A DNA stretch of 64,000 bases from Rhodococcus sp. ABRD24 (lineage in GTDB: Bacteria > Actinomycetota > Actinomycetes > Mycobacteriales > Mycobacteriaceae): NCBI RefSeq assembly GCF_004328705.1, contig NZ_CP035319.1:1302001-1366000 (forward strand), given 5' to 3'. This document shows, piece after piece, positions 21,501 through 22,662 of the stretch. A model generated the notes under the pieces. That model was given only the letters and a program-made list of their open reading frames with translations, was not told the DNA's origin and did not search any database. Each line of letters opens with the position of its first letter. Within the stretch, counting starts at the first letter, position 1. Both the position numbers and the translations under genes were made by a program.

Positions 21501-22360
21501 CGCCAACGCAGATTGGCGACGATCGCGCCGTGCCCGACCGCGACGCCCTTGGGGCGCCCGGTGGAACCGGACGTGAAGATGACGTACGCCAGGTTCTCCG
21601 CCGACAGCGGCGCCGACCGGTCCGAGTCGGTGACCGGCGCGTCCGAGCTGTCCTGCAGATCCAGGCCGTCGATCGGCAGGATCGGGGTCTCCGTGTCGAG
21701 GGTCAGCCCGTCCCGGGTCGTCGTGAGGATCACCACGGGACGCGCGATGTCGAGTACGTAGCCGAGCCGGTCGGCGGGATGGTCGGGGTCGAGCGGAACG
21801 TAGGCGCCGCCGGCCTTCACGATCGCGTACATGCCCACGAGCAGGTCGAGCGAGCGTCGAATTCCCAGGCCCACCAGGGTATCCGGGCCCACACCCAGCC
21901 CGATCAGGTACCGGGCCAGTCGGTTGGCACGCGCGTCGAATTCGGCGTAGGTGAGCGTCGCGCCGTCGAACTCGAGAGCGACGGCGTCGGGCGTCTGCGC
22001 GACCTGCGCGTCGAACAGCGACACGAGGGTGTCCACCGGCGCGATCGCGTCGGCGCCGAGGACCGCGCCGGCATCGACGAACAGCGCATCCAGCAGTCCT
22101 GCCAGGCCCCCGGTCTCGGGCGACTCGAGCAGACCGGGCACCAGACTGGAGAGCGCCACCGGTACGAGTGCGTCGAAGCCGAGCACCCCACCCATCGCGG
22201 CATCCAGCGTGTCGATCTCCGCCTTCAGCCGGGCATAGGTGACGGTGATCTCACCGCGCTCCAAAGCGATCCGGTCGGGATCGACGCCGAGAACACCGTC
22301 CAGCAGCCGTGGCAGATCCTCCACCGTGAACGTGTGGGCTCCGGGATTCTGGGCCGTCAT
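11675..22360 (-). CDS. NRPS-2: three-module nonribosomal peptide synthetase with split modules at both ends
   Basis: Middle protein of the assembly line, about 3561 aa. Layout: A-like docking segment 5-105, A 115-600, T 620-690, C 715-1145, A 1175-1660, T 1670-1735, C 1755-2185, A 2225-2710, T 2720-2790, C 2810-3240, degenerate truncated A 3283-3561. T domains carry GGNSL and C domains HHISADG/HHIAADG. By-eye codes: first A DVWHFSLVD (matches the known serine signature), second DALFVGAVA (unassigned, hydrophobic or aromatic-like), third DAWQFGVVQ (closest to glutamine signatures). No epimerization domain is present. The ORF opens at ATG 22381, abutting the NRPS-1 stop. I prefer the ATG at 22360 (MTAQNPG) because a GGGAGGA Shine-Dalgarno lies 9 nt upstream of it, between the two candidates. 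It is almost certainly co-transcribed with NRPS-1. Confidence 0.96.
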   Translation of the reverse strand: MTAQNPGAHTFTVEDLPRLLDGVLGVDPDRIALERGEITVTYARLKAEIDTLDAAMGGVLGFDALVPVALSSLVPGLLESPETGGLAGLLDALFVDAGAVLGADAIAPVDTLVSLFDAQVAQTPDAVALEFDGATLTYAEFDARANRLARYLIGLGVGPDTLVGLGIRRSLDLLVGMYAIVKAGGAYVPLDPDHPADRLGYVLDIARPVVILTTTRDGLTLDTETPILPIDGLDLQDSSDAPVTDSDRSAPLSAENLAYVIFTSGSTGRPKGVAVGHGAIVANLRWRQHMYPMTDADVVLQKTPFTFDVSVWEFFWPLQAGARLVIAAADGHRDPAYLARTMIECGVTVAHFVPSMLSVFVAEQSAADVTTLRNVFASGEALPPQTAARFREVSNASLHNLYGPTEAAVDVTFHEVTAADETTVPIGAAVVDTDLYVLDEGLRRVPDGVEGELYLAGVQLARGYLQRPDLTADRFVADPYGAPGDRMYRTGDLVKLGHSGELEYIGRTDFQVKLRGLRIELGEIESALLDHPAVSQSVVVVHADADLGDHLVAYVVTDGGADVDRHELAAAVSARLPEYMVPSLFVALAEFPLNASGKLDRKALPSPDFSSLASEYRAPSTPTEEMLAATFAEVLGADRIGVDDDYFALGGNSLSATRVVARINADLGIHIDVRDFFDAPTVARLAALVDAQAAQVAAGGDTRAPLVPQPRPEIVPLSLAQQRMWFLNRFDTDSAANNIVVAIRLSGSLDVAALSGAVNDVVARHESLRTVFPERDGAAHQVILAANEATVDLDAESISEAEIVGAIQETISRGFDVTAAVPIRLRLLAVSATEHVLVVVVHHISADGFSMGPLTRDVMVAYAARSTGNLPAWAPLDVQYADYALWQREVLGSEDDPESLIARQVDHWRSVLADLPDRLDLPTDRPRPAIASNIGASHRFSIDVELATRLHAVAREHGATPFMVVHAALSVLLARLSGTTDIAIGTPVAGRGEAALDDLVGMFVNTLVLRTDVRGDLPFAELLARVRASDLEAFGHADVPFERLVEILSPARSQARHPLFQVVLSFQNLDRTELVLGDLTVAGVDFDAAVAKFDLAVTLAEPDSGEAGFDVDLTYATDLFDAATMRAFSERFLRVLGAVASDPSVVVGDIEILDKAEASLLTAAGESAIESASLPQILRSAAGRDPSAIALVSGDKTVTYRELDERSSRLARALIARGAGPETVVAVALTRSIESVTAVWAVAKSGAAFVPVDPNYPADRVAHMVSDSLAVLGITIAEHIESLPGALSWLLLDEPETAEQVASESESVVTDSDRLCPLHVTHPAYVIYTSGSTGLPKGVVVTHAGLAAFAAEQIERYGLSARARTLHFASPSFDASILEMLMAFSVGAAMVIAPTSIYGGRELADLLRTQHVTHAFITPAALASIDPAGLDALRVVVVGGEACSANLVSRWAPGRQLFNAYGPTEATVASNISDALVPGEPVTIGRAIRGATAYVLDSRLRPVPAGVSGDLYLEGAGVARGYLGRPGLTAERFVANPFGAPGTRLYRTGDVVRTSSDRVLEYVGRADDQVKLRGFRIELGEIESVLAAHESVARAVVLVVREQLVAYVVAAEDRAIDVAALEEFAARSLTSYMVPSAVVVVSEIPLTGSGKLDRKALPEPEFEAAVFRAPSTPIEEAVAAVFADVLGAERVGLADDFFSLGGNSLLATQVASRLGAALETQIPVRMLFEVSTVEALAARVAGAAVGTTRELTAMSRPERIPLSLAQQRMWFLNRFEPASAANNIPLAIRLSGALDVESLQAAIGDVLDRHESLRTVFPDIDGTGHQLILPTAQAMTGLSVERVSETELLGRIESMVTSGFDLTTDLPVRVRLFALSANEHVLVLVAHHIAADGFSMGPLSRDVVTAYAARSTGVLPGWAPLAVQYADYTLWQREVLGSEDEPDSPIARQLDHWTAALAGLPDQLDLPSDRPRPAVASNRGASHRFSIDAQTRAGIDATARAHGATPFMVVHAALAALLSRLSGTCDIVIGTPVAGRGAAALDDLVGMFVNTLVLRTDVQPDRTFEDLLAVVRESDLVAFEHADVPFERLVEALDPPRSQARHPLFQVMLTFQNLGSASLELPGLTVAGVEFDTAVAKFDLQVTVSESAGESDPPMLAVDLTYATDLFDESTVIAFAERFQRVLQAVTADGSVTTGDIDILSAVERDRVLTEWSGPERAVAPSTLVELFDAQVAASPEATAVVSDDAALTYAGFASRVRRLARFLIAQGVGPESLVAVAMGRSTDLLVAVHAVLAAGGAYVPLDPDQPVERGRFVLELVQPVLLLRTAGENHIEADGTPVAEVDSLELSGYSDGPIADADRRSPLGGANTAYVIFTSGSTGRPKGVAVTHASATNLSLWMQDEYGLTELDRVLVKTPFTFDASVWELFWPLQTGASAVIAPRDAHRDPTALAAVIRDHAVTVAQFVPSVLDATIDHLGSAGAASLTQVFCGGEALTARTVSRLREITGAAIHNVYGPTEATVQATRQTVAGLDGAGVPIGAPAWNTSALVLDARLHPVPAGVAGELYLAGAQLARGYLGRADLTAERFVPNPFSGSGERMYRTGDLVRWNAGGELEYLGRTDFQVKLRGLRIELGEIEAALLAQSAIAQSAVLAKADQLVAYLVPASGRSLDTGAVQAELATSLASYMVPSVFVVLDHFPLNPSGKLDRKALPEPVIEATAFRAPVTPVEEIVAGVFADVLGVERVGRDDDFFALGGNSLVGTQVVSRLGAALDTTVPVRLLFEGSTVEALAARVARLDGAGRKPLVAGVRPERIPLSLAQQRMWFLNRLEPESTTYNIPLAMELTGNLDVAALQTALRDVLGRHEALRTYYPEDADGPHQVIMSVDCVGADLTPIVAEDETALHRRITELLGGGFDVTVGVPLRAGLFRTGPDHHVFAFVVHHISADGVSMAPVARDLVTAYAARVQGEAPRWTPLAVQYADFALWQRDILGSAEEPGTAAAGQLEYWARTLSGAPDLLALPTDRPRPPVQSMRGAETGFTVPTELHVALESLARQQNASLFMVAHSALAVLLARLSGTWDVTIGTPIAGRGDAELDDLVGMFVNTLALRTELASSMTFAEVLARARETDLSAFGNADLPFERVVEAVAPVRSTARHPLFQTVLSFQNQEQASLELPGLTVSGVPGTEPAAKFDLQLTLVPADSGALEAVLTYATDLFDESTAAMLGRRFVRILEAVAADSGAVIGDIEIASEQERVLLQGISTSTGRSGRVDSTGAVEPSDRTVPQVLAAVVEADPEAPAISGDGAETTYRELGEQSSRLARLLIAEGVGPGHCVPVAVPRSVDAVVAAWAVLESGAALTLIDTAAADADRGPSELAAKIGITTSAYADGLPDSVEWIVLDADASRIRIDEQSGRPVGYSERIRRLGPEDPALTASDGSWSITHGHLVALAERDRARYDVTYESRVVCTGPVSGVWWATALLLASTAGAVTVVTEVPGSNVTDILADEWVTHAFVSAACAQAVDMEELEDLEVLVLTDGAPPEQRQDVRRVVADAEAWFA
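22045..22345 (-). other. A-like N-terminal docking segment of NRPS-2
   Basis: About 100 residues precede the first real A domain of NRPS-2. They read TVEDLPRLLDGVLGVDPD, then VTYARLKAE, then DAAMGGVLGF and VALSSLVPGLL. This resembles only the first strand-helix part of an A domain and is homologous, residue by residue, to the C-terminal segment of NRPS-1. The tail after the shared part is Ala/Leu/Asp-rich and probably helical. Confidence 0.7.
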
Positions 22361-22381
22361 GTACTTCTGTCCTCCCGACAT

Positions 22382-22662
22382 CTACCGGTTGTTCTCGATC
22401 AGCTCCGTGGCGTCGGCAATCATCGCAGCGATCGCCGACGAGTAGCCGTCCGCACCCAGTGCCGGCAGGATGCCCGGCAACAAGCCGGACAGCGCCACCG
22501 TCATGAGCGCCTCCGCCTTGAGTGCTCCACCCATCGCGGCACGGACCGCCTCGAGCTTGGCGTGCAGGTCGCCGAAAGTGACATCCGTGCCGCCATGCGA
22601 GATCGCCATGGCATCCGGCGCGACCCCGGCTGCACCGGCCACGAGACCGGGCAAGTCCTCGA
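22382..22662 (-). other. A-like C-terminal docking segment of NRPS-1
   Basis: The last 93 or so residues of NRPS-1, after its final C domain, read [18 protein letters not shown], then VTFGDLHAK, then [13 protein letters not shown] and [11 protein letters not shown]. They end at ENNR followed by TAG. The segment mirrors the N-terminal segment of NRPS-2, giving two copies of one module facing each other at the protein junction. Confidence 0.7.

What the first reader, a model, noticed from the sequence alone, without database searches (positions are those of the whole stretch)
22045..22662. Mirror-image docking pair at the NRPS-1/NRPS-2 junction
The last 93 residues of NRPS-1 and the first 100 or so of NRPS-2 are homologous to each other. 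Both have TVEDLPxL, GVxPD, VTxxxL, AAMGGxL and VALSxLxPGxL in the same order. Both look like the first part of an A domain that has lost the rest, then gained a helical tail. The module is split between its C domain (NRPS-1) and A domain (NRPS-2), an unusual break point. Two copies of one fold meeting at the junction suggests a homotypic docking system rather than the classical COM or helical docking domains.
Basis: partly seen in the sequence, partly recalled or inferred. Interest (0 to 1): 0.85.

Follow-up and report, generated by a model that had tools for sequence, protein, structure and literature searches.

The report
Twin tail domains joining peptide synthetases
Two giant peptide-building enzymes that share one split module each carry, at the ends that meet, a copy of the same small domain derived from an amino-acid-activating domain; the paired arrangement recurs at split modules in related bacteria, which suggests, but does not prove, an undescribed way of plugging such enzymes together.

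Summary
Observation confirmed. NRPS-1's last 94 residues and the start of NRPS-2 align at 44% identity (E 6e-23), closer to each other than to any A domain found in the genome. Each is an A-domain N-terminus with a new helical tail ("SEG"). C-SEG(stop)//SEG-A recurs at 60 distinct junctions in Rhodococcus, Prescottella, Nocardia and kin. C-terminal and N-terminal copies form separate clades, and a second lineage has its own two-copy split. This favours a docking pair.

Against a simple homotypic dock: single internal copies (C-SEG-A) exist in uncut NRPSs of about 11,300 residues; in the least selected set 4 N-terminal copies and 1 C-terminal copy lack a neighbouring partner; AlphaFold2 folded each SEG but gave no confident interface (pTM 0.44, shallow alignment).

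New: the next junction of the operon (NRPS-2/NRPS-3) is also a C/A split. NRPS-2 ends in a truncated, P-loop-less A domain of about 280 residues and NRPS-3 begins with a whole A domain; this class recurs in the family. I read both as A-derived docking or scaffold domains of split C/A modules. Physical contact is unproven.

The parts
22385..22666 (-). C-terminal SEG copy: last 94 residues of NRPS-1
   Evidence: Profile match N1 aa 6843-6936, 126 bits (the window copies were among the rows of the profile); 44% identity to the other copy
22046..22327 (-). N-terminal SEG copy of NRPS-2
   Evidence: Profile match N2 frame aa 19-112, 126 bits
22328..22360 (-). Likely 11-residue leader of NRPS-2 (start ATG 22360, GGAGG upstream)
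   Evidence: 29 of 40 other junctions have the same leader length by the same rule
22382..22384 (-). Stop codon (TAG) of NRPS-1; the next in-frame codon is an ATG
22754..24073 (-). Last C domain of NRPS-1 (upstream half of the split module)
   Evidence: Cdom match aa 6374-6813; PF00668
20576..22042 (-). First A domain of NRPS-2 (downstream half of the split module)
   Evidence: Adom match aa 114-602, 776 bits; PF00501
22382..43192 (-). NRPS-1 frame (6936 aa)
11675..22381 (-). NRPS-2 frame (3568 aa)
12653..13960 (-). Last C domain of NRPS-2
   Evidence: Cdom match aa 2808-3243
11678..12523 (-). psi-A: truncated, P-loop-less A-derived domain at the C-terminus of NRPS-2 (second junction class)
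   Evidence: 39% identity over 277 aa to the NRPS-3 N-terminal A; P-loop deleted; the only E<=1e-70 match reported in the own genome (8 candidates scored)
9993..11441 (-). First A domain of NRPS-3, whole (approximate ends)

Best explanation
SEG is a small, non-catalytic domain derived from the N-terminus of an A domain. It sits where the A domain would start after its C domain. In some unsplit NRPSs one copy lies in line between C and A (cis form). Where the module is cut into two proteins, both cut ends carry a copy: C-SEG(stop)//SEG-A (trans form). Most likely the C-terminal and N-terminal copies bind each other as a pseudo-symmetric heterodimer and put the A-T part of the module next to its C domain. 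The psi-A//A junctions would be a second, larger version of the same idea: a dead A-domain half stays on the C domain and receives the next protein's A domain. Shown here: homology, position, recurrence, pairing with few exceptions, copy-specific residues, purifying selection, a second two-copy split in another lineage. Inferred: physical contact, its geometry, loss of catalysis, and that it directs assembly.
For: (1) 37 of 40 regions fetched, three more of the window's genus and the window itself show C-SEG at the very C-terminus and SEG-A at the next N-terminus. With later loci there are 59 pairs distinct by sequence, window included, plus L197. Those with genus codes fall in 7 codes. The genes lie in different frames in 28 of 40 junctions, with 39-219 bases from SEG to SEG, so this is not one broken gene. 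(2) 35 of 35 named loci found by the C-terminal copy have the partner (many are the same genomes as). (3) Tree: N-terminal copies one clade (100/99), C-terminal copies one clade (96/54, weak by aLRT), canonical A domains apart. (4) A split pair of G033 (L197) falls inside the INT-a internal clade (98/93), not with the main pairs. (5) Copy-specific residues in 41 + 41 copies: column 37 K 76% / R 20% in C-terminal, E 90% in N-terminal copies; column 12 A 100% / V 95%; column 19 R 100% in N-terminal copies only. Among 59 distinct pairs column 37 is K-E 46, R-E 8, Q-Q 2, K-A 1, K-Q 1, K-R 1. (6) dN/dS 0.20-0.32 (C-terminal copy) and 0.11-0.34 (N-terminal copy) in 6 comparisons among 4 genomes, like 200 residues of the adjacent C domain (0.07-0.26). 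(7) Each copy is folded with block means of pLDDT of mostly 74-92. (8) The other junction of the operon is also a C/A split with an A-derived C-terminus.
Against: AlphaFold2 pTM 0.44 for the joined pair: no confident interface (only 13 rows). The whole-module job was uninformative (pLDDT 57, pTM 0.32, 11 rows). Internal single copies show that SEG is not only a protein-end element. Orphans: 4 N-terminal copies with no partner just upstream (L199-L202) and 1 C-terminal copy (L203) whose next gene begins with an A domain but no SEG. Inter-copy covariation is dominated by relatedness (effective number 31; no enrichment at equal positions). In the second split lineage column 37 is R on both sides, and both copies are on average acidic (mean net charge -5.8 and -11.6), so a simple charge lock is not general.
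Confidence: 0.58

Rival explanations
1. Scaffold, not dock: SEG is a C-A spacer/platform that stabilises its own C or A domain. The two copies at a split each serve their own protein and do not touch; other surfaces (C with A, or T with C) hold the proteins together.
For: Internal single copies between C and A; orphan N-terminal copies; no confident predicted interface. For COM domains a scaffold role has been argued to be primary (PMC12402864, abstract and passages seen).
Against: Two copies are kept at splits in two lineages, while related uncut proteins have one; the C-terminal and N-terminal copies have diverged into separate types.
Confidence: 0.2
2. The C-terminal SEG docks onto the downstream A domain or its leader rather than onto the N-terminal SEG (heterotypic dock with an A-derived ligand), as psi-A//A junctions would suggest.
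For: psi-A junctions show no SEG on the downstream side in the regions examined; one C-terminal SEG faces an A domain without SEG (L203).
Against: At 60 distinct junctions the N-terminal SEG is present, which this does not explain.
Confidence: 0.15
3. SEG binds a third partner (an MbtH-like protein, a trans-acting tailoring enzyme, or an SEG on another NRPS encoded elsewhere), and the pairing at junctions is incidental.
For: Orphan N-terminal copies at the starts of NRPS frames without a partner just upstream.
Against: 10 of 11 C-terminal copies in the less selected set have the partner on the next gene (one search set). Whether a third gene travels with SEG was not searched for.
Confidence: 0.1
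4. Relic: leftovers of recombination in A domains when the gene was cut, without function.
For: SEG is derived from an A-domain start; psi-A looks like half a dead A domain.
Against: Purifying selection like that of the C domain, recurrence in 7 genus codes, conserved positions of their own, one clade for psi-A (30 true rows, 100/100).
Confidence: 0.07

Closest known systems
COM domains of NRPSs, cis and trans (PMC12402864: abstract and passages seen; PMC9113145: section 11 read)
   Same: Non-catalytic element at a junction between two NRPS domains; an internal (cis) and a split (trans) form; the trans form is thought to have arisen by gene splitting.
   Different: COM lies between E and C and one domain is cut into donor and acceptor parts; SEG lies between C and A and both sides carry a whole copy. 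SEG derives from an A domain. PMC12402864 states that docking types other than COM are found only as trans forms; SEG would be an exception.
PAX three-helix docking domains (PMC9113145 section 11); beta-hairpin docking domains (only named in the section read; details recalled)
   Same: C-terminal and N-terminal partners at subunit ends; for PAX, salt bridges give specificity.
   Different: [quoted passage not shown] the text read does not describe the partners as homologous to each other or to an A domain.
Split-module docking in trans-AT PKSs (four-helix bundles, DHD domains; PMC9113145, passages seen)
   Same: Docking inside a module rather than between modules.
   Different: PKS domains, short elements; no duplicated enzyme fragment in the passages seen.
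Adenylation domain N-terminal subdomain (LgrA and others)
   Same: Helix-strand-strand-helix start of about 45 residues; profile match to LgrA.
   Different: Sequence ends before the A3 P-loop, helical second half, sits at protein ends.

Membership tests
NRPS docking domain (general) | Sits at the C-terminus of one subunit and the N-terminus of the next | tested here: met
   C-terminal copy ends 0-14 aa before the stop in the 41 copies (up to 61 aa in later loci); N-terminal copy begins after an 11-residue leader in 29 of 40. Internal copies also exist.
NRPS docking domain (general) | Occurs as complementary pairs | tested here: inconclusive
   10 of 11 C-terminal and 10 of 15 N-terminal copies paired in the set (1 of the 15 at a contig end); orphans L199-L203; 9 internal copies
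NRPS docking domain (general) | The pair binds | tested here: inconclusive
   AlphaFold2 pTM 0.44 on 13 rows; whole-module job failed
NRPS docking domain (general) | Removal abolishes subunit communication | not testable with these tools
   Needs proteins
COM domain | Between E and C domains | tested here: not met
   Junction is C//A
PAX or beta-hairpin docking domain | PCP/C-type junction with a short helix or hairpin element (beta-hairpin features recalled) | tested here: not met
   C//A junction; 94-residue domain with 4 helices and 2 strands in the model
Adenylation domain (PF00501) | Pfam match and catalytic core motifs | tested here: not met
   No Pfam or NCBIfam match for either copy alone; the sequence ends before the P-loop. 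Homology to the A N-terminus is supported

The most novel reading that the evidence does not exclude
In Rhodococcus, Prescottella, Nocardia and kin, megasynthetases are cut inside modules between C and A and held together by domains recruited from the A domain itself, in two sizes: a 94-residue SEG on both sides, with a cis form in uncut enzymes, and a 280-residue dead half A domain on the upstream side facing a whole A domain. Modules are thus rejoined by copies of the very domain at which they were cut.
Probability: 0.45. Interest if true: 0.78.

Novelty: new variant of a known kind. Interest (0 to 1): 0.63.

Why it matters
The NRPS docking elements in the text I read are described at E/C borders (COM) and a PCP/C border (PAX). 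A natural, recurring C//A split with its own paired domain would give engineers a cut point between C and A, where A-domain exchange is usually wanted (recalled), together with specificity residues to test. It would also be a second case, after COM, in which a docking element has an internal cis form, so the question whether docking elements begin as scaffolds becomes testable. The psi-A class suggests a route by which such elements could arise from dying A domains.

Tried and rejected
Tried without result. Alignment A1 was too divergent for a collection scan. Inter-copy mutual information was dominated by relatedness. The first mixed alignment A2 put N-terminal rows on the C-terminal half, so it was not used for folding; in a script the C-terminal rows went to the N-terminal half. 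Family accession TIGR01733.1 was not accepted. The VIA structure library was not available. Whole-module folding failed.

Rejected. One broken gene or frameshift: different frames in 28 of 40 junctions, with separate frames on both sides. Chance similarity. Ordinary A-domain similarity: the two ends are far closer to each other than to any A domain found in the genome. A wide bacterial domain: at E<=1e-13, 15 of 397 order genomes and 3 of 396 phylum genomes matched, all in the own family; psi-A at E<=1e-70 in 9 of 298 order genomes, all own family. These searches score only the best candidates of a first look (13 or 8 a genome), so weak copies can be missed.

Rows dropped and miscounts mended. 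G003 (L031, also L125) has broken frames on both sides; L031 was left out of the counts. Ten near-identical loci were thinned before the second tree. The 62 pairs held 3 repeats; the recount gives 59. The 47 loci hold one repeat (L109 = L082) and not the window. In one search the row named PSI_L217 is the partner's whole A domain picked up by my script, so 30 of 31 rows count as psi-A. L195 (no psi-A), L180 (no downstream A found in the region) and L222 (ordinary A domain) are the misses among 32 psi-A regions. Apart from the 7 regions of the window's genus, psi-A regions were chosen from best hits and are not a random sample.

Print searches: ten in an open-access library; judged by titles and starts of abstracts, no listed paper describes these domains (one search listed 25 of 610). 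Subscription journals and preprints are not in it, so absence from print is not shown.
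Full report
WHAT IS THERE. The window carries a three-gene NRPS line on the minus strand: NRPS-1 (22382-43192), NRPS-2 (11675-22381) and NRPS-3 (3-11615, running off the window). The last C domain of NRPS-1 (aa 6374-6813) is followed after 29 residues by a 94-residue segment that ends with the protein. NRPS-2 begins with a short leader, a homologous 94-residue segment and then a complete A domain. The two segments are 44% identical over 86 residues without gaps (E 6e-23; score 177 against at most 66 in 2000 shuffles). 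In the whole own genome the C-terminal copy is the best match of the N-terminal one by a wide margin (1.7e-15 against 0.002). I call the segment SEG.

WHAT IT IS MADE OF. Neither copy has a Pfam or NCBIfam match. A profile of eight C-terminal copies finds solved A domains, best LgrA at whole-sequence E 5e-6 (two stretches together; the best single one has 17 bits). AlphaFold2 gives each copy the same helix-strand-strand-helix-helix-helix order, with block means of pLDDT of mostly 74-92. Foldseek's matches are mostly A-domain N-terminal parts, some over 41-46 residues at 1.4-2.3 A with 24-29% identity, but the best E-value is 0.7.

HOW IT IS DISTRIBUTED. In the window's genus the pair is at the corresponding junction in 9 of 13 other genomes (G001-G009; G003 with broken frames). 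Two others (G010, G012) have it only inside one giant frame, and G011 and G013 have no clear copy. Across 401 genomes of the family, many have matches below about E 1e-17, apart from a background of ordinary A domains down to about 1e-12 (not all matches were listed). Of 40 regions fetched from that list, 37 are C-SEG//SEG-A junctions and 3 are internal. A collection scan with the C-terminal copy gave 35 loci named Prescottella, Rhodococcus, Rhodococcoides and Nocardia; 35 of 35 have the N-terminal copy on the next gene, many being the same genomes as before. Counting each sequence once, 59 pairs were seen, window included, plus L197. Outside the family nothing matched at E<=1e-13 in samples of 397 (order) and 396 (phylum) genomes, which also hold family members.

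EXCEPTIONS. The least selected set is the 35 matches in 15 family genomes, classified: 10 pairs (20 matches), 9 internal, 4 N-terminal copies with no partner just upstream, 1 N-terminal copy at a contig end, and 1 C-terminal copy whose next gene starts with an A domain without SEG. Two of the 9 internal ones (in G060 and G083) were placed by frame length only. Uncut proteins of about 11,300 residues can hold two internal copies about 2,270 residues apart (L027, L028, L204). In G030 only one was seen in the 6,499 residues examined. Just upstream of the orphan N-terminal copies L199 and L200 lies a different gene, which from recall resembles an antigen-85-like mycolyltransferase.

HISTORY. In a tree of 126 rows (SEGs and canonical A starts), N-terminal copies form one clade (100/99), C-terminal copies one clade (96/54, so weak by aLRT) and canonical A domains one clade (100/99). 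Internal copies form two clades, one of them beside the paired copies. When a split pair of G033 (L197) was added, both its halves fell in that internal clade (98/93) and not with the main pair; its C-terminal half is a long branch. Two-copy splits therefore occur in two lineages whose uncut relatives have one copy per site. Whether splitting came with a duplication, or fusion with the loss of one copy, is not settled. The alignment has only 94 columns, and many inner forks are unresolved.

FUNCTIONAL SIGNS. dN/dS among four genomes of the genus is 0.20-0.32 for the C-terminal copy and 0.11-0.34 for the N-terminal copy, against 0.07-0.26 for 200 residues of the adjacent C domain (6 comparisons each). 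The two types differ at conserved positions: column 12 A (100%) against V (95%), column 19 R (100%) only in N-terminal copies, column 37 K/R (96%) against E (90%), column 51 K (73%) against G (93%). Among 59 distinct pairs column 37 reads K-E 46, R-E 8, Q-Q 2, and three others once each; the two Q-Q pairs (L085, L098) may be one inherited change. A wider covariation analysis showed no enrichment at equal positions, with an effective number of only 31, so it neither supports nor excludes symmetric contact. The window's N-terminal SEG lies after an 11-residue leader, as in 29 of 40 others. The genes are in different frames in 28 of 40 junctions.

STRUCTURE OF THE PAIR. The two copies, joined by reading the intervening stop as Q, were folded with 13 rows: mean pLDDT 77.6, pTM 0.44. 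This does not place the copies relative to each other. The whole split module with 11 rows failed (pLDDT 57, pTM 0.32), including its ordinary C and A domains, so shallow alignments limit this test. The structural question is open.

SECOND JUNCTION CLASS. NRPS-2 ends with a C domain followed by about 280 residues that match the first part of an A domain, narrowly best the A domain at the start of NRPS-3 (39% over 277 residues, E 9e-41; an A domain of NRPS-1 follows at 38%, E 3e-40). Of 25 regions, 24 show such a psi-A at the C-terminus and 23 of these also a whole A domain at the start of the next frame. Of 7 further regions 6 do, three of them with an A match that stops early. In all 25 psi-A copies aligned (24 plus the window) the P-loop motif is deleted. 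psi-A has motifs of its own (YESR, ADEWVTHAF and LEDLEVVVLTDG in the consensus of 8), and 30 true rows form one clade (100/100). At E<=1e-70 it was found in 9 of 298 order genomes, all in the own family. Nine genomes besides the window's hold both classes among the loci examined. Most of these regions were taken from best hits, so the figures show recurrence, not frequency.

MECHANISM. The C-terminal SEG occupies the place an A domain would take after its C domain (29 residues after it, against 33 for the A domain of the preceding module). The N-terminal SEG directly precedes the A domain. The simplest reading is that SEG meets SEG and restores the C-A neighbourhood of the cut module. The rival that SEG is first a C-A scaffold is kept alive by the internal copies; both can be true, as has been argued for COM domains (PMC12402864, abstract and passages). 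I put direct SEG-SEG docking at 0.58.

COMPARISON. The review PMC9113145 (outline, passages and section 11 seen) lists COM, PAX three-helix and beta-hairpin docking for NRPSs. The junctions given there for COM and PAX are E/C and PCP/C, and neither is described as two homologous copies derived from an A domain; the beta-hairpin section was not read. PMC12402864 states that docking types other than COM occur only in trans. SEG therefore does not meet the definitions tested and would be a new class of docking element, if binding is shown. Ten literature searches listed no description; the library lacks subscription journals.

Noticed in passing
window 11678-12523 (-), junction 11616-11675: NRPS-2/NRPS-3 is a second C/A split: NRPS-2 ends in a P-loop-less A-derived domain and NRPS-3 starts with a whole A domain; the class recurs in the family.
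   Followed up: yes
L199 (main strand about 2410-3607) and L200 (about 2209-3451): A gene that resembles, from recall, an antigen-85-like mycolyltransferase lies just upstream of an orphan SEG-A NRPS.
   Followed up: partly
L027, L028, L204, L090, L091: Uncut NRPSs of about 11,300 aa with internal SEGs; the A domain after the INT-a SEG scores low against ordinary A domains (about 400 bits against mostly 520-700 for neighbours).
   Followed up: partly
L031 / L125 (G003): NRPS frames at the SEG junction are broken on either side of it; could be sequencing error or decay.
   Followed up: no
L218, L220, L221: Downstream A domains at psi-A junctions whose profile match stops about 85 positions early, with a long gap before the next C domain: possibly interrupted A domains.
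   Followed up: no
own genome: Besides this line, five other giant frames with C domains (8975, 8214, 6284, 6251, 5490 aa), each a single frame; judged by C-domain matches alone, the two C/A splits here are the only junctions inside an NRPS line of this genome.
   Followed up: partly
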